The position numbers were made by a program, and so were the translations under genes. A stretch of DNA of 64,000 nucleotides from Saprospira sp. CCB-QB6 (GTDB taxonomy: Bacteria > Bacteroidota > Bacteroidia > Chitinophagales > Saprospiraceae), in NCBI RefSeq assembly GCF_028464065.1, contig NZ_CP116808.1, positions 2,881,501-2,945,500 on the forward strand, in the 5' to 3' direction. This document shows, piece after piece, positions 2,434 to 60,600 of this stretch. The notes below the pieces were generated by a model. It saw only the letters and a program-made list of their open reading frames with translations, made no database searches and was not told the DNA's origin. How positions within the stretch are numbered: the first letter of the stretch is position 1; each line of letters starts with the position of its first letter.

Positions 2434-2586
2434 AGCGGCGAAGCCGCTATGGCTGAAGGCCAAGGCCTAGCGATGTGCAGCAGTGGCCCGCAGGGCCAGA
2501 CCGAGCCGCCGCAGGCGGCGAAGGGCCGAGCAGACCTGCGAGCTGCGAAACGTAGCGCCGCAAGGCGAAGCCGCAGCGGAGGCCCC
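2434..2586 (-). repeat. G/C-rich hypervariable-hairpin element, copy 1
   Basis: Minus orientation, with the head (GGGGCCT) lying just downstream of the stop of the glycosyltransferase gene. Hairpin 2 has the stem GCCGCC-tgc-GGCGGC and hairpin 3 has GGCCC-tgc-GGGCC. The tail AGGCC can pair with the head GGCCT. Confidence 0.9.
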
Positions 2587-2632
2587 AAAACAACAGCATC
2601 TAGTATATACTTATATTAACTAGCAGCAAGAC

Positions 2633-4303
2633 CTATTGGGGCAAAAGTAATTGGGGCCAAGCCGCTGCGGGATCAGTGATTTCGAGGAGGAGAATGGCCC
2701 CCTCTTTTTGGTTGTCGATTAGTTTTAGGGGAAGTTGTTCTTGGCCCTGATAATAGGCCTGTACCAAAGGGGGGAGCTCCTCCCAGCTAGTATTGCTTTG
2801 ATAGCGACTAAAGGCATTGAGCAATAAATAGTAGCGAGTATTGGGCTGGGGCTGTTCTTGAGCCGTCTGTTGGTAGTTCCAAAAAAGGACCTGAGATTGG
2901 GGGGCAAACTGCATATAGTATTCGCCAAAATTGCGCTGTACAGGATTGCTAATCACTATGGCTGCCTGCTGCTGATCGGGAGAGAAATGCCGCAGGATCA
3001 GTTCCCGCTGCTCGATATAGCCTTGGGTTTTGGCATATTGCATACTTTGGTAAGTGGGGTAGGCCAAAGCCAAAATAAAGAGCGACATACTGAGTGCTCG
3101 TGCCCCAACCATTAAGCGCTGGGGAGAAAGGGCAAAAAGGGAAAGGGCCAAGGCCCAGCCGCCAATAGATAGGGCATTGCCATAGCCCAGCCAATAGGCT
3201 AAGCCGGTCCAAAACCACAAGGGCAGCAGTAGTCCAAGCGCATACTGCTTGCGCTGCCAAAAGGCCTGCAAATAAGGGGCGGCGGCGATGGCGGCCAAGG
3301 GGGCCAAATATAAAAAGTGACGGACATCTGTGCCGCACATGGGCACATAAGCCTTATAAGAAATCGTCATGAAGTAAGCCGAAAAAACACTAAGGCCTAA
3401 GCTAAGGCTCCAAAAGGCGGACTCGCTGTCCATTTTCCAGCGCTTGCCTTTTAGGAAAAAGAGACTGCCTAGGCCCAGGCCCAAAACAGGCAGCAAACCG
3501 CTGCGAAGAAATAAAAGGCCCAAACCATAGCTAATGCGCTCTAGTAAATGGGAAATTGGGAGCTGGTCGTAGCTGCAGGGATTGAAATAACTGCCTAGCT
3601 CGATGGCTTTGAAGCGATAGAGAAAACTACCTGTTTGGCCATAAATAACCCCAAAATAAAGGGCAAAAAAGAGGATCGAAAAGCCAATCGCCCAAGCCCA
3701 AAAGGCGAGGTATTCGCGGCGGTAAACATCTAAAATAAAGAAGACAAAAAAGACGGGCAGGGATAAGATAATGGTCTCTTTGGCCCAAAAAGAATAGAGT
3801 AAAATCAGGCTAAAGCTCAGGGCATAGGGCCAGCTTGGACCAGCCTGCCGCTTAAAGCGGAGCCGCCAAAGACATAGAAAAAGCCCTAAGGTCCCTAAAG
3901 CGACTAGAATGTCGGGCATGACCTTATCCGAATAAAATAGGCTCCATTCATTGAAGAAAAAGAGCAGAACGCCCCAGATGCCAGCCCCTTTCCAAGAGCC
4001 GCCCAAACTCCAAAAGATCAGTAGGGCCGTGGCGCCCGTGATGAGCATGGCGGGGAGGGCCCCAGCAAAATCATTGATGCCAAAAAGGGAATAGGATAGG
4101 GCCGTGGGGAAGATGGTCCCCCAGCGATAGGCATAGTGGTCGTCGCCTAAATGAAACTGCCCCTGCACTAATTGAGCGGCCTGATACATATAGCCCATGA
4201 CATCATCATAGCCATAGTGACCATAATAGCCAAAAAAATAATGTCCCAACAACAGGAGCGAAAGTAGGGCAGTAAGGCCCAAATAGGAGAGAAGTGATTT
4301 CAT
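2633..4303 (-). CDS. GT39/ArnT-like membrane glycosyltransferase
   Basis: Polytopic membrane protein of 556 residues from the chosen start. The frame is open to 4435, but the ATG at 4303 begins a typical signal-anchor (MKSLLSYLGLTALLSLLLLG) and the upstream extension runs into a GGGTTTCAACCC hairpin, so 4303 is preferred. After the first membrane helix comes GYDDVMGY, matching the acidic (D/E)D motif in the first periplasmic loop of protein-mannosyl- and ArnT-type GT39 enzymes. About ten further hydrophobic segments follow, then a soluble C-terminal part with ISNPVQRNFGEYYMQFAPQ. Such enzymes move sugars from polyprenyl-phosphate donors on the outer face of the inner membrane; the acceptor is unknown. 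The gene stands alone, with a large hairpin array upstream and a G/C-rich element directly after its stop. Confidence 0.75.
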   Translation of the reverse strand: MKSLLSYLGLTALLSLLLLGHYFFGYYGHYGYDDVMGYMYQAAQLVQGQFHLGDDHYAYRWGTIFPTALSYSLFGINDFAGALPAMLITGATALLIFWSLGGSWKGAGIWGVLLFFFNEWSLFYSDKVMPDILVALGTLGLFLCLWRLRFKRQAGPSWPYALSFSLILLYSFWAKETIILSLPVFFVFFILDVYRREYLAFWAWAIGFSILFFALYFGVIYGQTGSFLYRFKAIELGSYFNPCSYDQLPISHLLERISYGLGLLFLRSGLLPVLGLGLGSLFFLKGKRWKMDSESAFWSLSLGLSVFSAYFMTISYKAYVPMCGTDVRHFLYLAPLAAIAAAPYLQAFWQRKQYALGLLLPLWFWTGLAYWLGYGNALSIGGWALALSLFALSPQRLMVGARALSMSLFILALAYPTYQSMQYAKTQGYIEQRELILRHFSPDQQQAAIVISNPVQRNFGEYYMQFAPQSQVLFWNYQQTAQEQPQPNTRYYLLLNAFSRYQSNTSWEELPPLVQAYYQGQEQLPLKLIDNQKEGAILLLEITDPAAAWPQLLLPQ

Positions 4304-4417
4304 GCTGCTTGTTCTTGGGCCAAAGGTAAGCAGTGGAGGGCAGAAGAAAAAAGAAGATATAGATTGCTGTGGGTTAAAAATGTTAGCTAGCAAAAACGGT
4401 CCGCAGGGCAAGTTAAA

Positions 4418-4716
4418 AGCTGTGGAGGGTTTCAACCCTCCACGCTATGGATCTAGGCTGTTTTTTGTTGTCTGGCTGTAGGTTTCAACCTACAGGTATA
4501 TAGTAATTCAAAAGACCAAGAGCGGCTAATGATCGCCTAGGGCCAAGCCCCTAGGCGCAGAAAAAGGCTGTAGGTTAAAACCAACAGCCAACTAACAATT
4601 GAATTTTGTTTTAGCTGGAGGGTTAAAACCCTCCATAATTAAACAGGGGGTATTTTTTAGTTAGCCTAGGGCCTTGGCCCTAGGGGGATAGATGGGGGTA
4701 GATATGGATGACAAAA
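4418..4716. repeat. Cluster of single GGTTNNAACC hairpins
   Basis: Non-coding stretch with perfect or near-perfect palindromes. GGAGGGTTTCAACCCTCC lies around 4425-4442, CTGTAGGTTTCAACCTACAG near 4480, CTGTAGGTTAAAACC near 4569, and GGAGGGTTAAAACCCTCC near 4618. Two CCTAGGG-type palindromes lie at about 4536-4557 and 4663-4686. These are the same hairpin types that make up the tandem array to the right. Confidence 0.8.
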
Positions 4717-6104
4717 AAGACCTGTAGGTTAAAACCTACAGCAAGCGGCTGACCAATAGGGGCGATAAAAAAGAAGCCGAGGGTTAAAACCCTCAGCTCC
4801 TAATGAGAAAAGATTATTCTGGGCGGAAGGTTTCAACCTTCCGCTCAGCTGCAGGCTGTACTAAAGGTCCTTTGTTGCTGTGGGTTTTAACCCACAGGTA
4901 TTATAATTCCTAACAACTAAAGTAGTTAATTCAAAGGACCTGTAGGTTAAAACCTACAGCAAGCGGCTGACCAATAGGGGCGATAAAAAAGGAGCCGAGG
5001 GTTGAAACCCTCAGCTCCTAATGAGAAAAGATTATTCTGGGCGGAAGGTTTCAACCTTCCGCTCAGCTGCAGGCTGTACTAAAGGTCCTTTGTTGCTGTG
5101 GGTTTTAACCCACAGGTATTATAATTCCTACGAACTAAAGCATTTAATTCAAAGGACCTGTAGGTTTTAACCTACAGCAAGCGGCTGGCCAATAGGGGCA
5201 ATAAAAAGGAGCCGAGGGTTGAAACCCTCAGCTCCTAATGAGAAAATTATTCTGGGCGGAAGGTTGAAACCTTCCGCTCAGCTGCAGGCTGTACTAAAGG
5301 TCCTTTGTTGCTGTGGGTTTTAACCCACAGGTATTATAATTCCTAACAACTAAAGCATTTAATTCAAAGGACCTGTAGGTTTTAACCTACAGCAAGCGGC
5401 TGGCCAATAGGGGCAATAAAAAGGAGCCGAGGGTTGAAACCCTCAGCTCCTAATGAGAAAATTATTCTGGGCGGAAGGTTGAAACCTTCCGCTCAGCTGC
5501 AGGCTGTACTAAAGGTCCTTTGTTGCTGTGGGTTTTAACCCACAGGTATTATAATTCCTAACAACTAAAGCATTTAATTCAAAGGACCTGTAGGTTTTAA
5601 CCTACAGCAAGCGGCTGGCCAATAGGGGCAATAAAAAGGAGCCGAGGGTTGAAACCCTCAGCTCCTAATGAGAAAATTATTCTGGGCGGAAGGTTGAAAC
5701 CTTCCGCTCAGCTGCAGGCTGTACTAAAGGTCCTTTGTTGCTGTGGGTTTTAACCCACAGGTATTATAATTCCTAACAACTAAAGCATTTAATTCAAAGG
5801 ACCTGTAGGTTTTAACCTACAGCAAGCGGCTGGCCAATAGGGGCAATAAAAAGGAGCCGAGGGTTGAAACCCTCAGCTCCTAATGAGAAAATTATTCTGG
5901 GCGGAAGGTTGAAACCTTCCGCTCAGCTGCAGGCTGTACTAAAGGTCCTTTGTTGCTGTGGGTTTTAACCCACAGGTATTATAATTCCTAACAACTAAAG
6001 CATTTAATTCAAAGGACCTGTAGGTTTTAACCTACAGCAAGCGGCTGACCAATAGGGGCGATAAAAAAGGAGCCGAGGGTTGAAACCCTCAGCTCCTAAT
6101 GAGT
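4717..6104. repeat. 215-bp tandem array of four-hairpin units (six full, one partial)
   Basis: Unit starts, taken at AAAGgACCTG, are 4717, 4933, 5151, 5366, 5581, 5796 and 6011. The last four spacings are exactly 215 bp and those units are almost identical, while the first two differ more, so the array has grown recently. Each unit holds four palindromes in a fixed order: CTGTAGG..CCTACAG, GAGGG..CCCTC, GGAAGG..CCTTCC and GTGGG..CCCAC, each centred on GGTTNNAACC. No gene is seen inside. The array lies upstream of the glycosyltransferase and directly downstream of mutL, both on the minus strand. Confidence 0.9.
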
Positions 6105-6129
6105 AAGATTGGAGTGGCCGATAGTCGAA

Positions 6130-8001
6130 TTAAGACTCGAAGCGTCTATCTAGTTCTTCAAAATTGTAGCGAATAAAGCAGCGGCGTCCTCTGGGGGATC
6201 GCTCTGGGTTTTCGCAGGCAAAGAGCCGATCAATTAGGGCCTGCATTTCGAGCGGGCTAAGCCGCTTGGGTTGTTGTTTGGCCATGCGCATAGCCATAGC
6301 TCTGGCCATATTTTGTTCAAAGGAAAGAGAAAGGGATTGGCCCAATTGGTATTGCTCCAAGATTTCTTCTAGCCAGCCATCTTCTTCGCCCAATTGTTCT
6401 AAATAGGCGGGTACCGAAGAGATGACAAAGGTCGTTTCGCCCATAGGGACCAATTCAAAGCCCAAGCTTTTGAGCTGGGGCAGCAGCTCTTGTAAGAGCT
6501 TGGCATCCCGCAAATTCAGGCTAACACTAATAGGGAAGAGGCTGTGTTGTTGGACCAGCCGCTTATGTTCTAGCCGCTGCAAATAATCATCATAAAGGAT
6601 GCGCTCTAGGGCGGTCTGCTGATGAATCAATAAATAACCCGCTCTTAGGGGGCTAATCATATAGCCTTGGCCCAAATAAAAGAGCTCTTGTTTGGGGCCT
6701 TGGCCCATTTGCAGGGTCTCTTCTTCTTCCTGTTCAAAGAGTGGGGTTTGCTTAGAGAGCTTGGAGGGAAGCAGCTGTTGTTCTTCCTCCTCCTCATCTT
6801 GTAAATCAGCATAGAGCTTCTCCCAATGGGCCAGATTGTTCCGTTCCTGCTCCGTTTTTTGAGGGGGACGATAGCCGCCACCACCGCCGCTAGTTGTAGA
6901 CTTTGGGCTGCTCGTTTTTGTATTGGAAAATAGCTGTTGTTTTTCCATCCGCTCCCGCTCCAATTGCTTACTAATGCTCGACTCCTGCTCAAAGTCGATG
7001 CTAGGCGTCACATGATGTTGGGCCAAAGCATGGCGGGTACAGACTCTAAGGTAATTATAGATCAGTCGCTCATCCTCAAACTTAATTTCTTGTTTGCTGG
7101 GGTGGACATTCACATCAATTTTGGCGGGATCTAGCTCAAAGAAAACCACATAAATGGGATACATCTTTTGTGGGAGTAGATCTTCATAGGCCTGAAAAAG
7201 CGCATGTTGCAAATAATTACTTTTGATATAGCGCTGATTGACGTAGAAATACTGATCGCCACGCATCTTGCGGGCAAAATCAGGCTTGCCCACATAGCCC
7301 CAAATCTTAATAATATCGGTCTCTTCAGAGATGGGAATTAAGGCTTGAGCGTATTTCTTCCCCAATACCTGAATAATCCGTTGTTTGAGGTTGCTGGCGG
7401 GCAGATGAAACTGCTTTTGGCCATTGTGGTGCAAAGAGAAAAAGATATCGGGATGGGCAATGGCAATCTGCTGAAATTCATCGAGCACATGCTTAAATTC
7501 TACCTTATCCGATTTGAGAAAGTTGCGTCTAGCGGGAATATTGTAAAAGAGGTTCTTGACCGAAATGCTGGTCCCCGCAGCAGCCTGACAAGGCTCTTGA
7601 GAGAGCAATTCAGAACCTTCTACCTGTAGACGAACGCCCAGTTCCTCGCCCCGCTTTTTGGTCCGCATTTCCACCTGGGCCACGGCAGCAATAGAGGCTA
7701 GAGCCTCGCCCCGAAAGCCCATGGTATGCAGATTAAAAAGGTCTTCTGCCTTTTGAATCTTAGAGGTGGCATGTCGCTCAAAACTCATCCGAGCATCCGT
7801 TTCGCTCATCCCAATGCCATCATCCACCAACTGAATGAGGGTTTTTCCCGCATCATTGATAATCAGGCGAATGTTTTGAGCTCCTGCATCAATGGCGTTT
7901 TCCATCAATTCTTTGACTACAGAAGCGGGCCGTTGCACCACTTCTCCGGCTGCAATTTGGTTGGCAATATGGTCGGGCAATAGGCGAATAAGATCTGCCA
8001 T
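6130..8001 (-). CDS. mutL: DNA mismatch repair protein MutL
   Basis: MutL couples mismatch recognition by MutS to strand removal. This copy has 623 residues, typical in length. The N-terminal GHKL ATPase is intact: ELMENAIDAGA (about 31-41), DDGIGM (60-65) and MGFRGEALASI (94-104). The transducer domain carries VNVHPSKQEIKF near 298. A low-complexity linker with a Gly run and acidic stretches (about 355-435) leads to the C-terminal dimerisation domain. The site where endonuclease-type MutL proteins have DQHA(X)2E(X)4E reads HQQTALERILYDD (460-472), so the first Asp and the His are replaced. The C-terminus ENPERSPRGRRCFIRY is family-like. It is probably co-transcribed with the small membrane-protein gene 20 bp upstream. 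The repeat array lies directly after the stop. Confidence 0.95.
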   Translation of the reverse strand: MADLIRLLPDHIANQIAAGEVVQRPASVVKELMENAIDAGAQNIRLIINDAGKTLIQLVDDGIGMSETDARMSFERHATSKIQKAEDLFNLHTMGFRGEALASIAAVAQVEMRTKKRGEELGVRLQVEGSELLSQEPCQAAAGTSISVKNLFYNIPARRNFLKSDKVEFKHVLDEFQQIAIAHPDIFFSLHHNGQKQFHLPASNLKQRIIQVLGKKYAQALIPISEETDIIKIWGYVGKPDFARKMRGDQYFYVNQRYIKSNYLQHALFQAYEDLLPQKMYPIYVVFFELDPAKIDVNVHPSKQEIKFEDERLIYNYLRVCTRHALAQHHVTPSIDFEQESSISKQLERERMEKQQLFSNTKTSSPKSTTSGGGGGYRPPQKTEQERNNLAHWEKLYADLQDEEEEEQQLLPSKLSKQTPLFEQEEEETLQMGQGPKQELFYLGQGYMISPLRAGYLLIHQQTALERILYDDYLQRLEHKRLVQQHSLFPISVSLNLRDAKLLQELLPQLKSLGFELVPMGETTFVISSVPAYLEQLGEEDGWLEEILEQYQLGQSLSLSFEQNMARAMAMRMAKQQPKRLSPLEMQALIDRLFACENPERSPRGRRCFIRYNFEELDRRFES

Positions 8002-8021
8002 AAGCGATATGAGTTAAGGGA

Positions 8022-8351
8022 CTAGGAATTGGGAAACCAAAAGTGAAGCAAGCCAGGGAGCCAGCGCTCTAGGGCCGCATAGGCCGCTGCAGTCAGAATC
8101 CCCAGAATAATCAATAGGCGCAAAATACCGCCAGACCAAAGCCCGCGATGCTCTCGCTTGGCAATCTCTCTGGCCAAACGCAGCTCTTCACGGATGCGCA
8201 TCTTGGTCACTTCACGGTCAATATTGCCCGTTTTTCGACCTTCTGCTGCACGCACACGGTTCTCCAAGGCTTCTTTGTCCGCATCGTAAAAACGCGGCTG
8301 ATAGCCAAATCCACGAGGTTCACGCCCTCCTAGTTTAAAAAATTTAAGCAT
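8022..8351 (-). CDS. Small single-pass membrane protein upstream of mutL
   Basis: 109 residues. The N-terminal half is basic and soluble (KLGGREPRGFGYQPRFYDADKE), followed by a charged helix with many R/E/K residues. One strong membrane helix near the C-terminus (LLIILGILTAAAYAALERW) places the N-terminal part in the cytoplasm. Similar small proteins beginning with a F.Y.PR.YD motif are, as far as I recall, common in Bacteroidota and of unknown function. mutL starts 20 bp downstream, so they are probably one transcript, which does not by itself imply a repair role. The ATG at 8351 is the only good start. Confidence 0.7.
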   Translation of the reverse strand: MLKFFKLGGREPRGFGYQPRFYDADKEALENRVRAAEGRKTGNIDREVTKMRIREELRLAREIAKREHRGLWSGGILRLLIILGILTAAAYAALERWLPGLLHFWFPNS

Positions 8352-8461
8352 AATTGTATTCCTATTGAGGTGAATGAAGATAACGAACTTCTATTAAAGT
8401 AAAAAGCTTTGGCAAATCTCCTAATATCTACAGCCATTTTAGCTTTTTGTTCTATTTTTTT

Positions 8462-8599
8462 GGGGCCTCCGCAGCAAAGCTGCGGCGCTACGTTTCAGGG
8501 CTCGCTATTCGCTCGGCCCTTCAGCGCTGCGCGCCTCGGTCTGGCCTGACGGCCACCCTTGCACATCGCTAGGCCATTGGCGGCGGCGTCGCCGCCGAT
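8462..8599 (+). repeat. G/C-rich hypervariable-hairpin element, copy 2
   Basis: Plus orientation. Hairpin 1 is CCGCAGC-aaa-GCTGCGG inside GGGGCCT..GCGCTACG; hairpin 2 is AGCGC-tgc-GCGCC. The tail AGGCC can pair with GGCCT. An outer GGACCAAA motif follows at 8601. It lies antisense after the lipoprotein gene at 8609. Confidence 0.9.
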
Positions 8600-8608
8600 A
8601 GGACCAAA

Positions 8609-10943: not shown

Positions 10944-10955
10944 AAGAAAGTCATT

Positions 10956-11663: not shown

Positions 11664-11795
11664 AAAGGCAGTGGGTTAAGATATTTTAATGCCTACAAGA
11701 TACGGAAGTCCGCCAAATTCTTAAAACAGAGCGCTAAAAGGGGCGAACTCTTTTAGACTCAGGACTATGGGCAAACTATATGGCCGAGGTCCATT

Positions 11796-11910
11796 GGCTG
11801 AGGGATGGACAGCAGTGGCCGCAGGCCAGACCGAAGCGCGCAGCGCTGAAGGGCCGAGCGAATAGCGAGCTGCGAAACAGCCCGACCCGACCGCAGGGAG
11901 GGGCAGCCCC
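11796..11910 (-). repeat. G/C-rich hypervariable-hairpin element, copy 3
   Basis: Minus orientation, with the head GGGGCTG facing the stop of the HisC-like gene (12012). Hairpin 2 is AGCGC-tg(c)-GCGCT. The tail CAGCC can pair with the head GGCTG. Confidence 0.9.
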
Positions 11911-12011
11911 AAAAAAAACAGCAGTATAAAAAGGAGAAAAAAGGGGGATTTGGGCATAAAAAAAGGGAAAAACAGCTGCTGCTATCCTTCCCTAGAGGTA
12001 TTGGAATTCTG

Positions 12012-13181: not shown

Positions 13182-13279
13182 AGGGTTAGGCTGAGAAATG
13201 AGTGAATTATATAGACTAAAGGTATTATTTTTTGCTCAAAATTCGTGCTAGTCTGGCCCTAGTTTTTCGCCTTCAAGGC

Positions 13280-14974: not shown

Positions 14975-14986
14975 AGGAGATGTTTT

Positions 14987-16650: not shown

Positions 16651-16888
16651 GGGGCTGCCCCTTCCGCCAGCTTGAAAGCCAGCGCAAAGCGATACCGCTT
16701 TGCGAAGCTATACAAAATGAGGGTTGAAACCCTCATGAATTATCGGGCGGGTCGGGCTGTTTCGCAGCTCGCTGATCGCTCGGCCCTGCGCCAGCAAGCT
16801 GGCTGGGTCTGGCGCTTCGCGCCACTGCTGTCCATCCCTCAGCCAGTCGCTGCGCTCCTTTGCGGCGGCTTTGCCGCCTGTCCCATCC
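16651..16888 (+). repeat. G/C-rich hypervariable-hairpin element, copy 4, with insertion
   Basis: Plus orientation. Hairpin 2 is GCCAGC-aa-GCTGGC and hairpin 3 is GGCGC-ttc-GCGCC. The first hairpin loop holds an insertion of about 85 bp (16668-16750) with GCAAAGCG..CGCTTTGC and GAGGGTTGAAACCCTC palindromes; related insertions are found in copies 16 and 19. It lies between the divergent crtI and 17115 genes. The remaining sequence to 17114 shows no clear signal. Confidence 0.9.
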
Positions 16889-18722: not shown

Positions 18723-18850
18723 AGCGGGCGCAGCCCGCTGGCTGAGGGATGGACAGCAGTGGCCCAAAGGGCCAGACCCAGCGGGCGTAGCCCGCGCAGG
18801 GCCGAGCGATTAGCGAGCTGCGAAACAGCCCGACCCGAAGGGGCAGCCCC
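18723..18850 (-). repeat. G/C-rich hypervariable-hairpin element, copy 5
   Basis: Minus orientation, between DUF3822 and rsmD, therefore antisense inside a likely operon. Hairpin 2 is GCGGGC-tac-GCCCGC; CAGCC pairs with GGCTG. It keeps the rsmD frame open upstream and could mislead start calling. Confidence 0.9.
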
Positions 18851-20496: not shown

Positions 20497-20620
20497 GGGG
20501 CTTCCCTTCGGCCTGCGGCCTCAGGTCCTGCCCTTCCGGGCTCGCAGGTCTGCTCGGCCCTGCAGCCCTTCGGGCTTTGGTCTGCGGCTTCGCCGCCCCC
20601 TACAGGCCAGTAAGCCGCTC
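20497..20620 (+). repeat. G/C-rich hypervariable-hairpin element, copy 6
   Basis: Plus orientation, starting 7 bp after the ccmC stop. This copy has the head GGGGCTT and the tail AAGCC, a third matching end pair. Hairpin 2 is AGCCC-ttc-GGGCT. Confidence 0.9.
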
Positions 20621-23469: not shown

Positions 23470-23618
23470 GGCCCGAAGGGCCGCAGGCTGAGGGATGGAA
23501 AAGGGTGGCCCGTAGGGCCAGACCAAAGTTTTTTGAAGCGAAGCGAAAAAAACTGCAGGGCCGAGCAGACCTGCGAGCCCTGATACAGCCCGACCCGCCC
23601 AAAGGGCGGGGCAGCCCC
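23470..23618 (-). repeat. G/C-rich hypervariable-hairpin element, copy 7 (A/T stem)
   Basis: Minus orientation; the head abuts the rodA stop (23628). Hairpin 2 has an A/T stem AGTTTTTT/AAAAAACT closing a loop with TCGCTTCGCTTC, unlike the G/C stems of most copies. CAGCC pairs with GGCTG. Confidence 0.9.
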
Positions 23619-27666: not shown

Positions 27667-27790
27667 GGGGCTGCCTCTCCCTGCGGTCGGGTCGGGCCAT
27701 TGCGCAGCTCGCAGGTCTGCTCGGCCCTGCAGCCCTGCGGGCTTTGGTCTGCCGCCAAAGGCGGCCCTGCTCCAGCCCCTCAGCCTGCAA
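27667..27790 (+). repeat. G/C-rich hypervariable-hairpin element, copy 8
   Basis: Plus orientation. Hairpin 2 is AGCCC-tgc-GGGCT; the tail CAGCC pairs with GGCTG. Copy 9 lies next to it, tail to tail, and the spacer carries a GGGATTCC/GGAATCCC palindrome. Confidence 0.9.
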
Positions 27791-27912: not shown

Positions 27913-28058
27913 AGGCGGCGAAGCCGCCCTGGCCGTAGGCCAAATGGCCTAGCGATGCGGCGGGGTGGCCGAAGGCCAGACCGAGCCAGCAAAGCTGGCG
28001 AAGGGCCGAGCGAATAGCGAGCCCCAAAGCGTAGCGCCCGCCAAAGGCGGGAGGCCCC
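27913..28058 (-). repeat. G/C-rich hypervariable-hairpin element, copy 9
   Basis: Minus orientation, head toward the SulP stop. Hairpin 1 is CCCGCC-ttt-GGCGGG, hairpin 2 is GCCAGC-ttt-GCTGGC; AGGCC pairs with GGCCT. Confidence 0.9.
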
Positions 28059-31535: not shown

Positions 31536-31655
31536 GGGGCTGCCCCGCCCTTTGGGCGGGTCGGGCTGTGTCGCAGCTCGCTATTCGCTCGGCCCTTCGC
31601 CAGCTTTCAGCTGGCTCGGTCTGGCCTTCGGCCACTGCTTTCCATCCCTCAGCCA
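31536..31655 (+). repeat. G/C-rich hypervariable-hairpin element, copy 10
   Basis: Plus orientation, directly after the helicase terminator. Hairpin 1 is CCCGCC-ttt-GGGCGGG, hairpin 2 is GCCAGC-tttca-GCTGGC; CAGCC pairs with GGCTG. An outer GGACCAAA lies at about 31757. Confidence 0.9.
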
Positions 31656-34156: not shown

Positions 34157-34294
34157 GGCCCAAAGGGCCGCAGGCTGAGGGGCTGGAGCAGGGCCGCCAA
34201 AGGCGGCAGACCCAGCGGGCGAAGCCCGCGCAGGGCCGAGCAGACCTGCGAGCTGCGCAATGGCCCGACCCGAGCGAAGCGAGTGGGCAGCCCC
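34157..34294 (-). repeat. G/C-rich hypervariable-hairpin element, copy 11
   Basis: Minus orientation; the head ends 5 bp before the murF-alr stop. Hairpin 2 is GCGGGC-ttc-GCCCGC, and the third hairpin is GCCGCC/GGCGGC. CAGCC pairs with GGCTG. Confidence 0.9.
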
Positions 34295-36774: not shown

Positions 36775-36889
36775 GGGGCCTCCCGCCTTCGGCGGGCGCT
36801 ACGTTTCGCAGCTCGCTATTCGCTCGGCCCTGCGCGGGCTGCGCCCGCTGGGTCTGCCGCCTTCGGCCACCCCTGCACATCGCTAGGCC
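36775..36889 (+). repeat. G/C-rich hypervariable-hairpin element, copy 12
   Basis: Plus orientation, upstream of and antisense to murF-alr. Hairpin 1 is CCCGCC-ttc-GGCGGG, hairpin 2 is GCGGGC-tgc-GCCCGC; AGGCC pairs with GGCCT. A GAGGGCTTTAGCCCTC palindrome follows near 36925, and GGACCAAA near 36966. Confidence 0.9.
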
Positions 36890-45263: not shown

Positions 45264-45402
45264 GGGGCTGCCCACTCGCTTCGCTCGGGTCGGGCTGTTT
45301 CGCAGCTCGCTGTTCGCTCGGCCCTGCGCGGGCTGCGCCCGCTGGGTCTGCTGCCTTCGGCAGCCCTGCTACAGCCCCTCAGCCTGCGGGCGCTTCGCGC
45401 CC
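45264..45402 (+). repeat. G/C-rich hypervariable-hairpin element, copy 14
   Basis: Plus orientation, starting 4 bp after the stop of the membrane-protein gene. Hairpin 2 is GCGGGC-tgc-GCCCGC, hairpin 3 is GCTGCC-ttc-GGCAGC; an extra GGGCGC-ttc-GCGCCC hairpin lies after the tail. CAGCC pairs with GGCTG. Confidence 0.9.
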
Positions 45403-47516: not shown

Positions 47517-47575
47517 AATATGGTATTTTTCAGTAGAAGTCATTGAGAGAGGTTTGGGGGCATCCTGGACCATTG

Positions 47576-47686
47576 GCCTAGCGATGTGCAGCAGTGGCCG
47601 TTAGGCCAGACCGACGCCCAAAGGGCGAAGGGCCGAGCGAGCAGCGAGCCCCGGAACGCAGCGCCTGCCGCAGGCAGGAGGCCCCC
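47576..47686 (-). repeat. G/C-rich hypervariable-hairpin element, copy 15
   Basis: Minus orientation; head toward the TonB-receptor stop (47726), between two genes of one likely operon. Hairpin 1 is CCTGCC-tgc-GGCAGG, hairpin 2 is CGCCC-ttt-GGGCG; AGGCC pairs with GGCCT. Confidence 0.9.
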
Positions 47687-47725
47687 AAACCTACTGAATA
47701 AGAGTCAGAAAAAATTTAGGAAAGT

Positions 47726-51943: not shown

Positions 51944-51987
51944 ATTTAAGGAGGCGATTAAACTTGCCGGCCTATAAAACGTCATCA

Positions 51988-52026
51988 AAAAAAGACCTGA
52001 AGTATTAAGCTTTAGGTCTTTTTCTT
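51988..52026 (+). terminator. Terminator after the EEP nuclease gene
   Basis: Stem AAAGACCT/AGGTCTTT with a loop of about 15 bases, then TTCTTTT. Confidence 0.65.
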
Positions 52027-52028
52027 TT

Positions 52029-52230
52029 GGGGCTGCCCCTTCCGCCGGGTTAAAACCCAGCGCAAAGCGGTATCGCTTTGCGAAGCGATATAAAATGAGG
52101 GTGGAAACCCTCATGAATTATCGGGCGGGTCGGGCTGTTCCGGGGCTCGCTGCTCGCTCGGCCCTTCGCAAAAAAGCTGCGCTTTTTTGCTCGGTCTGGC
52201 CTGCGGCCACCCTATCCATCCCTCAGCCAG
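52029..52230 (+). repeat. G/C-rich hypervariable-hairpin element, copy 16, with insertion
   Basis: Plus orientation. Hairpin 2 has the long A/T stem GCAAAAAAGC-tgc-GCTTTTTTGC. The first loop carries the insertion (about 52047-52122) with GGGTTAAAACCC, GCAAAGCG..CGCTTTGC and GAGGGTGGAAACCCTC. CAGCC pairs with GGCTG. Confidence 0.9.
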
Positions 52231-52312
52231 ATAGAATGGCCTTGCTTTGGTCATCTTGGGGAATTTGTTTGCTATTTTAAGGAGAGGGCCAAAAGTTGGG
52301 GGGCGGCCATCA

Positions 52313-52449
52313 GCCGCAAAGCGGCTTCTGGCCTAGCGCTGTGAAAGGGGGCGGCATAGCCGCCGACCTAGGGCGGCCTTGGCCGCCCGCAGGGCCGAGC
52401 AGCCTTGCGAGCCCTGAAACATAGCGGCGGGCTTTGGCCCGCAGGCCCC
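52313..52449 (-). repeat. G/C-rich hypervariable-hairpin element, copy 17
   Basis: Minus orientation, tail to tail with copy 16. Hairpin 1 is GCGGGC-caaa-GCCCGC, hairpin 2 is GGGCGGCC-aa-GGCCGCCC; AGGCC pairs with GGCCT. From 52450 to 52702 nothing is seen beyond a likely promoter of the next gene. Confidence 0.88.
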
Positions 52450-52702
52450 AAATTATTTGTAGGCTAGAGATGTTGTCAATTATTATGGCTTTTGGGGGCT
52501 GCAAAACAAATAAATTGAGTGCTTGATATGAAAGAATTAAAGTTGGGGCTGTTTGAAACTTCTTATTGGCTTTTAGCCAAATATTGTTTTTTGTTTGGCT
52601 TCCCTTAACAAAATTTATGAAGTTCTTTATTGGGGCTTTCCCCTTGAAAAAGGCTATTTTGGCCGCCGTTAACATAAAAATTGACTACTGATAATTTTAT
52701 CA

Positions 52703-55114: not shown

Positions 55115-55145
55115 AATGAACCAATACTATATATATTATAGCAAT

Positions 55146-55178
55146 AAGGCCCGCTTCCTTTAGAAGTGGGTTTTTTAT
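55146..55178 (+). terminator. Rho-independent terminator after the TonB receptor
   Basis: CCCGCTTC/GAAGTGGG stem with one G.T pair, then T6. Confidence 0.75.
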
Positions 55179-55185
55179 TTATCTT

Positions 55186-55327
55186 GGGGCCTGCCGCCTT
55201 TGGCGGCCGCTCCCTTTCGCAGCTCGCAGGTCTGCTCGGCCCTGCAGCGCTAAAGCGCTTTGGTCTGGCCCTTTGGGCCACCCCTACAGGCAGCTAGGCC
55301 TGCGGCGGCTTCGCCGCCTGTCCCATC
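55186..55327 (+). repeat. G/C-rich hypervariable-hairpin element, copy 18
   Basis: Plus orientation, directly after the terminator. Hairpin 1 is GCCGCC-ttt-GGCGGC, hairpin 2 is AGCGC-taaa-GCGCT; AGGCC pairs with GGCCT. An extra GGCGGC-ttc-GCCGCC hairpin follows. Confidence 0.9.
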
Positions 55328-55616
55328 CAAAAGCTAAACGAGAAAAAAAGTAAATTTTTTTCAAGACTAAACACCAAAATACAAGCAGCTTACATCTAGT
55401 CAAATAGAAAGTTCTTGAAGGCTTGTTGAGCGGCAATATATGCAGCTCCGCAAGGAAAAAAGCGAAATTAAAGGAAGCGCTTTAGTGTTTTCCCCAAAAA
55501 AAAATTATTTTTGGCAGCAAATGCCCCAAAAATGGCAGCCCCAATTTGTTGGGCCAACCTATTCTTGGCGGCTAATCACTTGATTTTAATATCCTTTAAT
55601 TAAGCTAGTTTCGCTT
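55328..55616 (+). other. A/T-rich region upstream of gcvH
   Basis: No gene or repeat seen. TATTTTTG at 55506-55513 fits the -7 pattern, without a well-placed TTG. Confidence 0.3.
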
Positions 55617-55997
55617 ATGAACATTCCAGAAAATCTGAAGTACAGTAAGGACCACGAATGGGTTCGCCTAGAAGGGGAGTTCGCTTTTGTTGGTATTACT
55701 GATTTTGCCCAGTCTGAACTCGGAGATATCGTTTATGTTGATATTTCTGAAGAAGGGGAGGACCTAGACGCTGATGAAATCTTTGGCTCTGTAGAAGCTG
55801 TGAAAACAGTTTCGGACCTGATGATGCCCATTAGCGGAGAGGTGGTAGAAGTTAACGAAGGCCTAGAAGATAGCCCCGAGTTAGTCAACTCTGATCCCTA
55901 TGGCGAAGGCTGGATGGTTAAAATCAAAGTTCGGGATGCTGCCGAAATGGATGATTTGATGGATGCCGCTGCTTATAACGCAGCAATCAATGCCTAA
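55617..55997 (+). CDS. gcvH: Glycine cleavage system H protein
   Basis: 126 residues, full length. The lipoylated lysine is K63 in [13 protein letters not shown], the family's lipoate site. The N-terminus ([21 protein letters not shown]) and [20 protein letters not shown] are characteristic. It shuttles the aminomethyl group between the P, T and L proteins. The VanZ-like gene overlaps its stop by 8 bp, so both are translated from one message. Confidence 0.96.
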
Positions 55998-56325
55998 GCG
56001 ACTTTTTTCCTTAGCCTACTTTTTTGCCCTTATTGCTCTGGTCCTACTTTCACTTTGGCCACTGCAATTGCCCGCTGGCTTAAATGGCTTGGGTTGGGAC
56101 AAATTAGCTCACTTTCTTTTTTATTTCGGCCTGCTGCTTTTGGGCAATAGCGTTTGGAGACAAAAAAGAAATAACCTCTATTTTAGCTTCGCCTTAGGCC
56201 TTCTCTTAGAATGTTTACAAGACTTAAGCCCTTACCGTCAATTTGACTACGGGGATTTAGTTGCAAATACATTAGGTGCCTTGGCCGGCTATTACTTGTT
56301 AAGGAAATATTTCATGTTTCAATAA
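55990..56325 (+). CDS. VanZ-like membrane protein
   Basis: 111 residues from the ATG at 55990 (in the gcvH overlap); an upstream in-frame ATG lies deep in gcvH and is less likely. About four hydrophobic helices, with [18 protein letters not shown] and [29 protein letters not shown], both typical of the VanZ family (DK..HF and F...D...N..G). The role of stand-alone VanZ proteins is unknown. gcvH-vanZ-tonB are closely spaced. Confidence 0.8.
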
Positions 56326-56354
56326 ATTATTTTTTCACCCAAAACCACAGAATT

Positions 56355-57341
56355 ATGCTGTTAGGATTCCTCTCTAACGACTTTCTGATGGCGAGCATTA
56401 TGGTCTCTGGAAGCCAAATTGTAATTAGCCTTGTTTTGCTAATTGCTGTGGCCGCTGGAGCTATCTTTGGCTATAAATCGTACTTGGCTAAGCAGAGCGA
56501 AAAACTCATGCAAGCAAAAGTAGATGCTAAAGATGCCAATTACTCGGCTATCACTAGAAAGTATGAGGAGGTGAATGTGTTTAAACACTCGCCCACGGTG
56601 TACCGGGCAGGTTTGGCATGTTCGCTCTTTGTGGTCTTCTTGGCGCTAAACTGGACTCAAACCGAATGGGAAGAGTTTGCTTTTGAGGAGGAAACGGTGA
56701 TTGAATCAGAAGAAATTCTGATCGATGTGCCTAACACGCCACCACCTCCGCCTCCGCCACCGCCACCCCCCCCACCACCACCTCCGCCCACACAGGTACA
56801 AATTGATGATACTAAACCTGAACCTCCACCTGAGCCACCATCTCAGGATGATGAGCAGCAGGATTTAGAAGGTGATAAGGATGGTAAAAAAGGAAGCAAA
56901 GGAACTCCGCCGCCTCCTCCTCCCCCTCCACCACCGCCCCCCCCACCACCTCCACCCAAAGCCCCAGAGGTTTTTGAATTTGTGGAGCAGTTTCCTCGCT
57001 TCCCTGGTTGTGAGGATGAAAATAAGACGGATGCAGAAATGAAGCAGTGTGCTGATTTGAAACTCCGCGCTTATTTGGGCAAAAAAGCGGGTTATCCTGC
57101 TATGGCTCGCGAAAATGGCATTGAAGGAACCGTTTACGTTCGTTATATCGTACTAGAAGATGGCCGTATCGCCAATGTTGAAGTCGTTCGCGACATGACA
57201 GGCGGTGGAGGACTAGCTGAAGCTGCTCTCCGTGCTGTAAAAAGTATGAACAGTATGAAGGAAAGATGGACTCCTGGTCGCCAAAGAGGTAATCCCGTAC
57301 GCGTGCGTATGGTTGTACCAATCAAGTTCCAATTGAACTAA
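56355..57341 (+). CDS. tonB: TonB energy-transducing protein with two proline tracts
   Basis: 328 residues. Two hydrophobic helices are seen (about 18-40 and 82-102), separated by a cytoplasmic segment, unlike the single helix of classic TonB. Two runs of 17 prolines flank an acidic/Lys linker in the periplasmic part. The C-terminal TonB domain (about 215-328) reads YPAMARENGIEGTVYVRYIVLEDG..VKSMNSMKERWTPG..VRMVVPIKFQLN. It passes energy from the inner membrane to TonB receptors such as the two in this window. Start: ATG 56355 or 56388; the first is given. A terminator follows. Confidence 0.9.
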   Translation: MLLGFLSNDFLMASIMVSGSQIVISLVLLIAVAAGAIFGYKSYLAKQSEKLMQAKVDAKDANYSAITRKYEEVNVFKHSPTVYRAGLACSLFVVFLALNWTQTEWEEFAFEEETVIESEEILIDVPNTPPPPPPPPPPPPPPPPPTQVQIDDTKPEPPPEPPSQDDEQQDLEGDKDGKKGSKGTPPPPPPPPPPPPPPPPPKAPEVFEFVEQFPRFPGCEDENKTDAEMKQCADLKLRAYLGKKAGYPAMARENGIEGTVYVRYIVLEDGRIANVEVVRDMTGGGGLAEAALRAVKSMNSMKERWTPGRQRGNPVRVRMVVPIKFQLN

Positions 57342-57367
57342 AATCTTGGCTTTTGCCAAACTGTATA

Positions 57368-57400
57368 AAGCTACTCTGAAAGGAGTAGCTTTTTTTTTGC
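57368..57400 (+). terminator. Rho-independent terminator after tonB
   Basis: AGCTACTC/GGAGTAGCT stem followed by T9. Confidence 0.9.
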
Positions 57401-57442
57401 TCTCCATCAGATAATTGTTGGTCCAAACGACCGAAGGGAGTA

Positions 57443-57652
57443 AGGCGCGCAGCGCCTGGCTGAGGGATGGGCAGCAGTGGCCCAAAGGGCCAGACCCAGC
57501 CGCCTTTGGCGGCGCAGGGCCGAGCGACCTGCGAGCTGCGATACAGCCCGACCCGAACGGAAACTCATGAGGGTTTTAACCCTCATTTTCTATCGCTCCA
57601 CAAAGCGATATCGCTTTGTGCTGGCTTTCAACTCGGCGGAAGGGGCAGCCCC
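57443..57652 (-). repeat. G/C-rich hypervariable-hairpin element, copy 19, with insertion
   Basis: Minus orientation. Hairpin 2 is GCCGCC-aaa-GGCGGC. The first loop carries the insertion (about 57560-57636), including GAGGGTTTTAACCCTC and CAAAGCGATATCGCTTTG. CAGCC pairs with GGCTG. 57653-57882 shows no gene. Confidence 0.9.
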
Positions 57653-57882
57653 AAATCATAAAAACAGTTGGATAGCTGAACAGAAAATAGCAAAACCACG
57701 ACTCCATAATAAAAAGGAGAGCTAAAGCTTAAATAAAAAAGAAGATTGTGTATATTTTGGGTCTCGGAATCAAAAGTTTTTTATTCCGGAATAAACTGAC
57801 ACCAACAATCAATTAAATTTGCTGCTTACTTCCTTCATAATGAAGGGCTAAGGAGGAAAAAGATAGAAAAACAATAAAATAT

Positions 57883-59592
57883 ATGTCTGCTGTAGAAAAA
57901 CGATGGCTGAAAAATTACCCTCAAGGCGTTCCTCATGAAATCGATTTTGGGGGATATACGAGCTTAGTCGGATTGGTTAATGATAACCTGAAAAAATATG
58001 CGAACCGTCCTGCTTTTAGAAGCTTTGTGGGCAGTTCGGAAAAAATGCTCACTTTTGGAGAAATTGATCAGCTGTCTAAGCAGTTTGCAGCTTATTTGCA
58101 AAATGAAATGGGCCTTAAGCCTGGTGATCGCTTGGCGTTGATGATGCCCAACCTTCTACAGTATCCTATTGCGTTGTTTGCGGCTATGCGTGCGGGGTTG
58201 ACGATTGTGAACACTAATCCACTTTATACGGCTCGTGAAATTCAACACCAATTTCACGATGCAGGCGTAACAGCGGTTGTCATTGCCGAAAACTTTGCGG
58301 CAGAGCTGGAAAAGGTGATTGATAAAACAGGGGTGAAGCGTAATAAAGTTATAGTGGTGAGCATTGGCGAAATGTTTGGCGGTTTTAAGGGCTGGTTGAT
58401 CAATTTTGCCGTGCGCAAGCTCAAAAAAATGGTTCCTAAATATAATTTGGCGGGCCATATTAAGTTTAAAAAGGCCTTGAATCAAGGCAATGCTAGCCAA
58501 CTCAAAATGGCTAGTGGGGGCCAACTCGATGATGTGATTTGCCTACAATATACGGGCGGAACAACTGGGGTGGCTAAAGGGGCTGAGCTGACTAATAAAA
58601 ATATGTTGGCCAATGTTTTCCAAGTAGAAGGCTGGATCAATAGTGCAAACCTCAAGGAAGGCGATGAGCGAATTTTAACGCCTTTGCCTTTGTACCATAT
58701 TTTCTCTTTTACGGTAAACTTGCTTTGTTTGGGTACCTCTTTTGGCGCCTGCAATGTTTTGGTGGTAAATCCCAGAGATTTACCTGCAGTGGTCGATATC
58801 ATGAAAAAAACGCAGCCTTCTGTGATGACTGGGGTGAACACTTTGTTCAATGCGCTTTTGAATAATGAAGAATTTACGCAACTCGATTTTTCTAAGTTGC
58901 AAATTGTTATTGGTGGCGCTATGGCTATCCAAAAACCTGTGGCCGAAAAATGGAAAAAAGTCACGGGTTCTACTTTGACCGAAGGTTACGGCATGACTGA
59001 AGCCTCTCCTGTAGTTTCTGTGAATCCCCTCTATGATGAGGGCCGAATTGGCACTATCGGCTTGCCTATTCCCTCTACCGAATTGCGCATTTGCGATGAA
59101 GATAATAATCCCTTGCCCTTGGGGGAAGCTGGAGAAATTCAGGTTCGTGGTCCCCAAGTGATGAAAGGTTACCTCAATCGCCCAGAAGATACTGCCAAAA
59201 CAATTGTGGAAGATGGCTGGCTGCGTACAGGTGATGTAGGGGTTATGGATGAAGATGGTTTTGTCAAAATTGTGGACCGCATTAAGGACATGATTTTAGT
59301 TTCGGGCTTTAATGTTTATCCCAACGAAATTGAAGAGGTGCTTGCCGCTCATCCCAAAGTTTTGGAAGTAGCCGCAGTAGGCGTTCCTGATCCCAAATCA
59401 ACAGAAGCGGTTAAGGTTTTTGTGGTGAAAAAAGATCCTTCTTTGACGGAAGAGGAACTCCGCGCTTTCTCTAAAGAGAATTTTACGGGCTATAAAAAAC
59501 CCAAGCATTACGAATTTAGAGAGGAATTGCCCAAAACCAATGTGGGGAAAATCCTTCGCCGCGCCTTGAGAGATGAGGCCAAAAAGGCATAA
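57883..59592 (+). CDS. fadD: Long-chain acyl-CoA synthetase (FadD-like)
   Basis: 569 residues of the AMP-forming adenylate family. Phosphate loop YTGGTTGVAKGA (about 222-233), TEGYGMTEASP (about 367-377), GWLRTGDVG (about 445-453) and KDMILVSGFNVYPNEIEE (about 466-483), plus the catalytic lysine in LPKTNVGKILRRALR near the C-terminus. It charges fatty acids with CoA for degradation or lipid synthesis. Monocistronic with a strong terminator. Confidence 0.93.
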   Translation: MSAVEKRWLKNYPQGVPHEIDFGGYTSLVGLVNDNLKKYANRPAFRSFVGSSEKMLTFGEIDQLSKQFAAYLQNEMGLKPGDRLALMMPNLLQYPIALFAAMRAGLTIVNTNPLYTAREIQHQFHDAGVTAVVIAENFAAELEKVIDKTGVKRNKVIVVSIGEMFGGFKGWLINFAVRKLKKMVPKYNLAGHIKFKKALNQGNASQLKMASGGQLDDVICLQYTGGTTGVAKGAELTNKNMLANVFQVEGWINSANLKEGDERILTPLPLYHIFSFTVNLLCLGTSFGACNVLVVNPRDLPAVVDIMKKTQPSVMTGVNTLFNALLNNEEFTQLDFSKLQIVIGGAMAIQKPVAEKWKKVTGSTLTEGYGMTEASPVVSVNPLYDEGRIGTIGLPIPSTELRICDEDNNPLPLGEAGEIQVRGPQVMKGYLNRPEDTAKTIVEDGWLRTGDVGVMDEDGFVKIVDRIKDMILVSGFNVYPNEIEEVLAAHPKVLEVAAVGVPDPKSTEAVKVFVVKKDPSLTEEELRAFSKENFTGYKKPKHYEFREELPKTNVGKILRRALRDEAKKA

Positions 59593-59608
59593 GAATTAGT
59601 TTAGGACC

Positions 59609-59638
59609 AAAAAGGGGCTTCGGCCCCTTTTTTTTGCA
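59609..59638 (+). terminator. Rho-independent terminator after fadD
   Basis: AAAAGGGGC-ttcg-GCCCCTTTT with T8; the UUCG tetraloop makes a very stable hairpin. Confidence 0.92.
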
Positions 59639-59651
59639 GAAAATAAACCGT

Positions 59652-60434
59652 ATGCTCCGATTTATGCTCATTCGGCTCCTTAAATGGAGCCTGTTCATAC
59701 TTTTGATTGGCCGAGCCTGGCAGCACTTTTTCTGGTCGGCTCCCTACGAATATATTTTGCCCGCTAGTTGGGGCCCCGATGGGGTCGACCATTTTACCCA
59801 TCTGATGGGCTGGTTTTATGTCTTGGGAGCCGCCGCTACCTTGTTTAGCGATAGCCGAAATAAAGGCCGCATTTTTATTTGGCAAGGCGGTGCACTTTTG
59901 GTTTTGGCCTGGCTCTATCAAATTGAAGCTGGTGCCTATTGGCCCAGCTTTTTTGTACATAGTTTGCAGTTTTCACTGCCCTTTAGCTACCATTTATTGC
60001 TCTTTAGCAAAAAACCAGTCCAACAAATTATTTGGCGAATGAAAATGGCCATTAGCCTGAGCTTACTCGCCTACGCTTTTTATGCCCTAGATGTGCATGC
60101 CCCCAATCAAATCAATTGGCAAGAGGCCCTACAAGATAGTTTTGGCCTCAGCTATGGCAATAGCCGCTTGATTTTACAAGTTATGGGCGCTGTGGAGCTC
60201 GCCTTGATTCCACTTCTTTGGTTTAAACCTAGCCAAAAAGCTGCTTTTTGGGGCGTTTTTGCCTGGGGCATTCTCATTATGATTAGCAGTATTGGCCTAC
60301 TATTTTGGGAGCTCCCTTACTGGAAATCTATGCTCCGATCTACCTGGGAATTACTCTGTCTAACACCCAATCTCGCCTTTTCTTACGTCCTTTGGCGCTA
60401 TGTGGTCTTCCGCCAAAAATATGAAGATTTCTAA
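59652..60434 (+). CDS. Polytopic membrane protein of unknown function
   Basis: 260 residues from the ATG at 59652; the frame can be extended to a TTG at 59634, inside the fadD terminator, which is unlikely. About seven hydrophobic helices. WGPDGVDHFTHLMGW and HSLQFSLPFSYHLL place histidines in or near helix ends. No known family recognised. It ends with a terminator and a repeat element. Confidence 0.6.
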   Translation: MLRFMLIRLLKWSLFILLIGRAWQHFFWSAPYEYILPASWGPDGVDHFTHLMGWFYVLGAAATLFSDSRNKGRIFIWQGGALLVLAWLYQIEAGAYWPSFFVHSLQFSLPFSYHLLLFSKKPVQQIIWRMKMAISLSLLAYAFYALDVHAPNQINWQEALQDSFGLSYGNSRLILQVMGAVELALIPLLWFKPSQKAAFWGVFAWGILIMISSIGLLFWELPYWKSMLRSTWELLCLTPNLAFSYVLWRYVVFRQKYEDF

Positions 60435-60441
60435 TCGATTT

Positions 60442-60471
60442 TAGCCTAGCTTTTTGCTGGGCTATTTTTTT
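60442..60471 (+). terminator. Terminator after the 59652 gene
   Basis: TAGCCTAGC/GCTGGGCTA stem with one T.G pair, then T7 running into copy 20. Confidence 0.75.
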
Positions 60472-60600
60472 GGGGCTGCCCCTTCGGCCCTCTGGGCCTT
60501 CGGGTCGGGCTGTATCGCAGCTCGCTGCTCGCTCGGCCCTGCGCCGCCAAAGGCGGCTGGGTCTGGCCTTCGGCCACCCCTCCACAGCGCTCAGCCGCTC
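60472..60600 (+). repeat. G/C-rich hypervariable-hairpin element, copy 20
   Basis: Plus orientation, following the terminator. Hairpin 1 lies in CCCTTCGG..GGGCCTTCGGG; hairpin 2 is GCCGCC-aaa-GGCGGC. CAGCC pairs with GGCTG. Confidence 0.9.

What the first reader, a model, noticed from the sequence alone, without database searches (positions are those of the whole stretch)
2434..60600. Twenty copies of a structured element with hypervariable but always complementary stems
Seen directly: about 20 intergenic copies share the constant blocks CGCAGCTCGC (or close), GCTCGGCCCT and GGTCTG, but the segments between them differ completely while remaining inverted repeats. Hairpin 2 stems include GCCGCC/GGCGGC, GCGGGC/GCCCGC, GCCAGC/GCTGGC, AGCCC/GGGCT, AGCGC/GCGCT, CGCCC/GGGCG and A/T stems. 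Hairpin 1 stems vary in the same way (CCGCAGC/GCTGCGG, CCTGCC/GGCAGG, GCGGGC/GCCCGC). The flanking bases change together (TC..TC, GC..TG, GC..TT). Constant scaffold with swapped stems is the pattern expected for selection on fold, not sequence. I know no named RNA or repeat family of this kind.
Basis: seen in the sequence. Interest (0 to 1): 0.9.

Follow-up and report, generated by a model that had tools for sequence, protein, structure and literature searches.

The report
Genome-wide lattice of folding DNA elements
A marine predatory bacterium (Saprospira) carries about 1,300 copies of a short element between its genes, each with different arms that still pair into the same fold and laid out in mostly alternating direction along the chromosome; no known family that was tested matches, and the evidence suggests that one DNA strand is what folds.

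Summary
GCTCGGCCCT has 1,336 copies (675/661 by strand; reversed control 0) in this Saprospira genome and 1,347-1,371 in three S. grandis genomes; two other congeners have 0-1. Helix arms stay complementary although modules are mixed: P4 perfect in 301 of 353 copies against 91 after shuffling; P1 in 303 of 324. Of 130 sites compared, 103 are shared by three genomes, while whole stems are swapped between species at the same site. First, the complementary strand folds better: 112 of 123 copies, 90 of 100 with RNA and with DNA energies. Its P6 loops are GNA or GNNA, the ultra-stable DNA mini-hairpin motif, in 295 of 353; GNRA is nearly absent. That favours folded single-stranded DNA over RNA. Second, neighbouring copies alternate in orientation: 336 of 375, whatever the gene direction (39:45). 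No Rfam match; no RAYT, recombinase or RT specific to carriers was identified (one plasmid serine recombinase unresolved). Best reading: a REP/BIME-like boundary element acting as folded ssDNA. Function is inferred.

The parts
2464..2586 (-). element copy; in all rows the strand given is the GCTCGGCCCT (reader) strand, the better-folding strand is the opposite one
8462..8575 (+). element copy
11796..11910 (-). element copy; the opposite-strand MFE shows P1, P3, P4 and P5
16651..16844 (+). element copy, ends counted by hand; P2 arm replaced by a longer module with ATGAGGGTTGAAACCCTCATGA
18740..18850 (-). element copy, ends counted by hand
20497..20616 (+). element copy; insertion between genes that keep their order without it in G003 and G004
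23486..23618 (-). element copy; one end of the G001 inversion
27667..27785 (+). element copy
27946..28058 (-). element copy, 283 bp from the previous one core to core, opposite orientation, no predicted gene between
31536..31654 (+). element copy; other end of the G001 inversion
34173..34294 (-). element copy; whole P5 hairpin differs from the other three genomes while most of the rest is alike
36775..36889 (+). element copy; apparent recombinant with mismatched P4 (GCAG/CCCC) and P6
40890..41020 (-). element copy
45264..45384 (+). element copy
47575..47685 (-). element copy; the two flanking genes match neighbouring places of G004 with a gap of 244 nt there against 412 nt here (G004 gap not read)
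52029..52228 (+). element copy, ends counted by hand; P2 arm replaced as in 16651-16844
52330..52449 (-). element copy found only in this genome, not at this site in G005, G002 or G001
55186..55300 (+). element copy; opposite-strand RNA-parameter z = -2.31, reader strand -0.42
57458..57652 (-). element copy, ends counted by hand; P2 arm replaced as in 16651-16844
60472..60596 (+). element copy; apparent recombinant of unlike 5' and 3' halves

Best explanation
SHOWN BY COMPUTATION: helices P1, P4, P5, P6 (and less cleanly P3) keep complementary arms while their sequences are exchanged; the complement strand folds better; its P6 hairpins carry the GNA/GNNA loops known from ultra-stable DNA mini-hairpins; copies sit between genes irrespective of gene direction, most at positions fixed since before the compared Saprospira genomes diverged; neighbours mostly alternate in orientation so that each DNA strand carries one element about every 6 kb; whole stems differ at orthologous sites; two inversions have both ends in oppositely oriented elements. 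INFERRED: the fold forms when the strand is single (replication, repair, supercoil-driven extrusion); a host DNA-binding or recombination protein reads the folded strand rather than its sequence; copies exchange modules by gene conversion or template switching, and misfolded recombinants tend to be lost; the service to the cell is a unit boundary (supercoil or recombination insulator, bidirectional stop), as proposed for REP/BIME repeats. Same-strand copies too close together are probably lost by direct-repeat deletion or excluded at insertion, which helps to give the alternating layout.
For: P4 301/353 perfect vs mean 91 (max 117) in 2,000 shuffles; normalised mutual information 0.65-0.97 within helices or paired flanks vs 0.00-0.23 between modules. 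P1 303/324. Complement strand more stable in 112/123, p 1.4e-19; with full-length copies 90/100 with RNA energies and 90/100 with DNA energies, p 4e-14 and 8e-15. More than 260 bp from elements in the same 364 kb only 2 of 166 perfect triloop hairpins (stem 6 or more) are C(GNA)G, against 131 of 252 nearer. GNA/GNNA mini-hairpin DNA: PMC4686876, passages read. Alternation 110/120, 112/125, 114/130; the 3 decayed copies added by nhmmer all lie in same-orientation gaps, in the missing orientation. 103 of 130 sites in 3 genomes. Gap occupancy: convergent 29/32, tandem 70/95, divergent 17/36 of gaps >=150 bp; tandem orientation 39:45. Stem swaps. Inversions.
Against: No experiment. No partner protein established: Y1, tyrosine-recombinase and RT genes occur equally in non-carriers. 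P5 loops are less clear: 83 of 171 triloops are GNA; tail hairpins are mixed, 61 vs 27. The strand test and the loop bias are not independent, since loops and wobbles enter the energies. MFE z-scores are modest (complement mean -1.8 to -2.2) and DNA-energy folds of three single copies were mostly weak. In this genome alone G.T against A.C is 3:3 for P1 and 4:7 for P4; the commonest single P4 mismatch over all is G.G (11). Nearest-neighbour similarity is strong only in G000, slight in G005 (within the permutation range), absent in G001, so the donor of exchanged modules is unknown. One of three inversions is complex. Two independent per-strand lattices of the same regularity would already alternate in 82%. 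P3 pairs only 75% Watson-Crick, shuffled 59%.
Confidence: 0.5

Rival explanations
1. A structured RNA transcribed from the complement strand, for example a small RNA or an mRNA-border element kept by selection on RNA.
For: Complement strand folds better, also with RNA energies; wobbles are on that strand; GA..GA flanks beside P5 would suit tandem G.A pairs.
Against: Orientation is independent of adjacent genes; wobble cells on the complement outside one P3 position are only about 0.5-1.3% per helix, less than RNA families usually show (recalled); GNRA tetraloops are nearly absent while GNA triloops dominate P6.
Confidence: 0.2
2. A decayed mobile element (MITE/REPIN-like) whose transposition intermediate was folded ssDNA; the present fold is a relic kept alike by gene conversion, with no benefit to the cell.
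For: Two sites look like insertions between genes that keep their order in an element-free relative; the 5' end abuts T-rich sequence (63 of 120 copies have 7 or more T in the 12 nt before it, background about 5%); alternation looks eroding: 4 same-orientation neighbours are shared by three genomes, against 10-16 in each.
Against: No Y1 transposase shared by all carriers (other transposase families were not searched); copies within a genome differ greatly yet keep the fold, and 103 sites persist in three genomes, which simple decay would not give.
Confidence: 0.2
3. Stems are complementary only because palindromes are self-correcting: template switching at quasi-palindromes keeps hairpins perfect without selection.
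For: P5 hairpins are about 98-99% Watson-Crick and hairpins are swapped whole.
Against: P1 and P4 have 4-5 bp arms that flank independently exchanged hairpins and still match; copies with mismatched P4 exist but are the minority (52 of 353, parser errors included).
Confidence: 0.08

Closest known systems
REP / BIME repeats and REPINs with RAYT transposases
   Same: High-copy intergenic palindromic repeats, complementary stem changes, alternating orientation within BIMEs, proposed roles in chromosome organisation and termination (PMC2817692, abstract and passages read).
   Different: REPs are 20-40 bp palindromes (PMC3733652, abstract and passages); here a branched fold of more than 100 nt with nested long-range helices; alternation runs along the genome at kb spacing, not inside one cluster; no shared RAYT found; G.T pairs are rare, whereas GT pairing was often observed in GTAG REPs (PMC3733652).
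Integron attC sites
   Same: Poorly conserved sequence, conserved structure, a variable terminal structure, recombination involving only the folded bottom strand (PMC2727003, abstract and passages read); gene units lie between sites.
   Different: attC arrays are direct repeats (recalled); here neighbours are mostly inverted; no integrase specific to the carriers and no attC-type boundary boxes (recalled motif) in the consensus.
ERIC, NEMIS/Correia and MITE-type intergenic repeats (recalled)
   Same: Foldable repeats of about 100-200 bp near gene ends.
   Different: As recalled, those share sequence along most of their length and lack module swapping with kept complementarity and genome-wide alternation.
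GNA/GNNA-loop mini-hairpin DNA, d(GCGAAGC) type (PMC4686876, passages read)
   Same: C(GNA)G and GNNA loops on one strand.
   Different: Here repeated over a thousand times in a bacterial chromosome, inside a larger fold.

Membership tests
REP/BIME/REPIN | Short (20-40 bp) single imperfect palindrome with a GTAG or CGTC tag at one end | tested here: not met
   More than 100 nt with several helices; no such tag at the ends of the consensus
REP/BIME/REPIN | Alternating orientation of units | tested here: met
   336 of 375 neighbours alternate, but at kb spacing along the genome
REP/BIME/REPIN | RAYT (Y1) transposase gene flanked by the repeat | tested here: not met
   Y1 genes occur in carriers and non-carriers alike; of 10 of the 12 compared, none is shared by all four carriers and the nearest element is 0.6-2.5 kb away
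Integron attC | One-strand fold with variable stems | tested here: met
   (computed fold only)
Integron attC | Integron integrase in the genome | tested here: inconclusive
   Two Phage_integrase genes in each carrier, 2-3 in the two non-carriers; not typed further, so no carrier-specific integrase but IntI not formally excluded
Integron attC | Conserved boundary boxes and direct-repeat arrays | tested here: not met
   consensus begins GGCC[T/C]AG and ends GGCCCC; neighbours mostly inverted
Rfam RNA families | Score above the family's gathering threshold | tested here: not met
   0 matches in the window; at E<=1 three weak matches, two away from elements, one (51986-52049) overlapping the 5' edge of the copy at 52029
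Phage or plasmid repeat | Present in viral or plasmid collections outside the host | tested here: not met
   0 exact matches of the long pattern in viral contigs; one element as query finds 2 of 72,556 plasmids, both Saprospira
Structured RNA | Transcribed and folded in cells | not testable with these tools
   no RNA data

The most novel reading that the evidence does not exclude
Saprospira carries a chromosome-wide double lattice of folded-ssDNA sites, one about every 6 kb on each strand and largely phase-locked, so that most transcription units or short groups of them are bracketed by inverted sites. A structure-reading host protein uses them as attC-like or origin-like ssDNA sites to partition, insulate or flip gene units and to trade hairpin modules between sites: a genome-scale site system read by structure, not sequence.
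Probability: 0.2. Interest if true: 0.95.

Novelty: new variant of a known kind. Interest (0 to 1): 0.85.

Why it matters
It is a natural experiment with over a thousand variants of one fold in one genome, so the rules by which a folded strand is recognised can be read by statistics. If the folded strand is DNA, it would be a very large set of ssDNA-structured sites in a bacterial chromosome. The alternating layout makes the old question of what high-copy intergenic palindromes do for chromosomes directly testable. More than 1,300 copies in each of four genomes, with most compared positions fixed, make a pure junk explanation hard.

Tried and rejected
Composite transposon (+ cargo -): rejected as a general rule, because at two units the would-be cargo gene is a neighbour of the same backbone gene in element-free G004. 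Purge of direct repeats by distance alone: same-strand copies are never closer than 2.55 kb in the regions examined, which is compatible, but direct pairs of a few kb are common when an inverted copy lies between. Nearest-neighbour gene conversion as a general rule: seen in G000 (adjacent 0.087/0.103 vs 0.034), slight in G005, not in G001. My early note that lack of G.T meant no single-strand signal was wrong; I had looked at one strand only. Dedicated RAYT, tyrosine recombinase or RT: none specific to carriers. A serine recombinase is on the plasmid contig of all four carriers and not found in G004, but G003 has another one; too few genomes to conclude. Covariance model R1 had a poor automatic structure and was never searched with. 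RNAalifold recovered only part of the fold; MAFFT misaligned P1 and P2. My first P4 parsers misread many rows; one search replaced them. My first cut of element ends was 8 nt short in 20 of the 123 rows (and in A1, A2); one search repeated the test with mended ends on 100 of the 121 copies of the 364 kb region (21 dropped: 11 not parsed, 9 without 5' end, 1 by length).

Rows dropped elsewhere: one search placed 140 of 156 copies between two predicted genes (3 fell inside predicted genes, the rest lay at stretch ends or were not assigned); 25 of 378 copies did not parse; 29 of 353 had no P1 call; 75 of 353 lacked the regular 3' side. One listed copy in G001 was not hit by nhmmer. One search used 123 of 156 copies (by length and parse). 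Genome papers of strains Lewin and Sa g1 are not held and were not seen. That nothing like this is in print rests only on searches; most subscription papers are not in the library.
Full report
WHAT WAS CHECKED. The window lies in a 4,185,531 bp chromosome (plus a 53,242 bp second contig) of a Saprospira genome. The stricter pattern CTCGC-N4-6-GCTCGGCCCT has 632 forward and 632 reverse copies; of 395 Bacteroidota genomes in that search 8 matched, this one and 7 with a single match each. Of five other same-genus genomes three have 1,347 to 1,371 copies of the 10-mer, the other two 1 and 0; one of these two is 63% complete.

ANATOMY. Twenty copies lie in the window. In the 353 of 378 copies from three genomes that parsed, P4 arms are perfectly complementary in 301, against a mean of 91 and a maximum of 117 in 2,000 shuffles; the two arms of one helix share 0.70 (P4), 0.74 (P5) and 0.97 (P6) of normalised mutual information, different modules 0.23 at most. 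P6 was found by asking for a perfect stem, so its value is inflated. Orthologous copies are not independent, but in G000 alone P4 cells are 94.7% Watson-Crick against 66% after shuffling, and P1 97.1% against 80%. P1 has three main compensated states, 136, 116 and 44 copies.

WHICH STRAND, AND DNA OR RNA. In G000 alone P1 is 3 vs 3 and P4 7 vs 4. The complement is more stable after correction for composition in 112 of 123 copies, mean z -2.20 against -0.94 (RNA energies). A repeat with mended ends on 100 of 121 copies gives 90 of 100 with RNA energies (z -2.15 vs -1.12) and 90 of 100 with DNA energies (z -1.82 vs -0.98). Perfect triloop hairpins away from elements in the same 364 kb are C(GNA)G in 2 of 166, against 131 of 252 near elements. 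PMC4686876 (passages read) describes GNA and GNNA loops with at least two G-C pairs as extraordinarily stable mini-hairpin DNA. I therefore favour folded ssDNA of the complement strand, without excluding RNA; loops and energies are not independent lines.

PLACEMENT. The 5' end sits in T-rich sequence: 63 of 120 copies have at least 7 T in the 12 nt before GGGGC, background about 5%.

ALTERNATION. In 364-398 kb of three genomes, 110 of 120, 112 of 125 and 114 of 130 neighbouring pairs are oppositely oriented (binomial about 1e-22 to 1e-19). A profile search added three decayed copies, all in same-orientation gaps and in the missing orientation; the other 36 such gaps held none. Gaps with reader-strand 3' ends facing are 0.2-5.2 kb (medians 1.4-1.6), those with 5' ends facing 1.5-9.6 kb (medians 3.8-3.9); the latter always hold a predicted gene (168 of 168), the former lack one in 52 of 168. 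Per strand the spacing is about 6.0-6.2 kb with CV 0.32-0.33 and a minimum of 2.55 kb; orientation shuffles give CV 0.76-0.77. Two independent lattices of that regularity would alternate in 82% on average (99.9% quantile 92%), so alternation and per-strand regularity are largely two views of one rule; the 2.4-2.7-fold gap asymmetry is beyond the 99.9% quantile (2.35) of that model. The three genomes share most sites and are not independent tests. The second contig carries 22 copies, 19 of 21 neighbours alternating.

HISTORY. Of 130 sites in the compared region 103 are shared by G000, G005 and G001, 19 by two, 8 are in one. At the same site whole stems differ between species. Four same-orientation neighbours are shared by all three, against 10-16 in each, so the order seems to erode. 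The G003/G004 intergenic sequences that I read at orthologous places have no element; at two junctions the flanking genes keep their order there. Two inversions have both ends in opposite elements (23557/31587 in G001; 79618/82843 of the joined region in G000), a third is complex.

PARTNERS. Y1 transposases: 3, 1, 1, 2, 3 and 2 in G000, G001, G002, G003, G004 and G005; of 10 compared none is shared by all carriers. Tyrosine recombinases: 2 in each carrier, 2 and 3 in the non-carriers. RT: 1-2 in all six. Serine recombinase: one per carrier, on the small contig, none in G004, a different one in G003. No Rfam match.

VERDICT. The finding is real, large, seen only in Saprospira among the genomes examined, and not explained by any named family that I could test. 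The best label is a new variant of interspersed extragenic palindromic elements, REP/BIME-like in habit and attC-like in logic, but filed as a member of neither. Function is inference.

Noticed in passing
window 16651-16735, 52029-52115, 57560-57652: A second palindromic module (with ATGAGGGTTGAAACCCTCATGA or close) replaces the P2 arm in three window copies and in further copies elsewhere.
   Followed up: partly
L014, L017, L018: Some copies carry an inserted hairpin module between GCTCGC and GCTCGGCCCT (…ACTTGCTTCGCTGCGTCGGCTCCCGTTGGTCGGGT…).
   Followed up: no
window 4350-4760 and elsewhere: Other short palindromes (GGAGGGTTGAAACCCTCC, CTGTAGGTTGAAACCTACAG) recur near elements, perhaps a second repeat family.
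   Followed up: no
second contig of G000 (53,242 bp): It carries 22 elements, 19 of 21 neighbours alternating, and a small serine recombinase; one such gene is on the small contig of all four carrier genomes.
   Followed up: partly
element 3' flanks in the 364 kb region: 23 of 121 copies have GGACC-AAA or a close variant 60-190 nt downstream, which with the 5' T-run could make an outer inverted end; no background was computed.
   Followed up: partly
L041-L045 (G003/G004): Two genomes placed in the same genus lack the element, look AT-rich in the intergenic pieces read and are about 65-75% identical in shared genes.
   Followed up: partly
G000: The small-subunit rRNA family search returned no match in this 99.9% complete genome; probably a limit of the tool or masking.
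   Followed up: no
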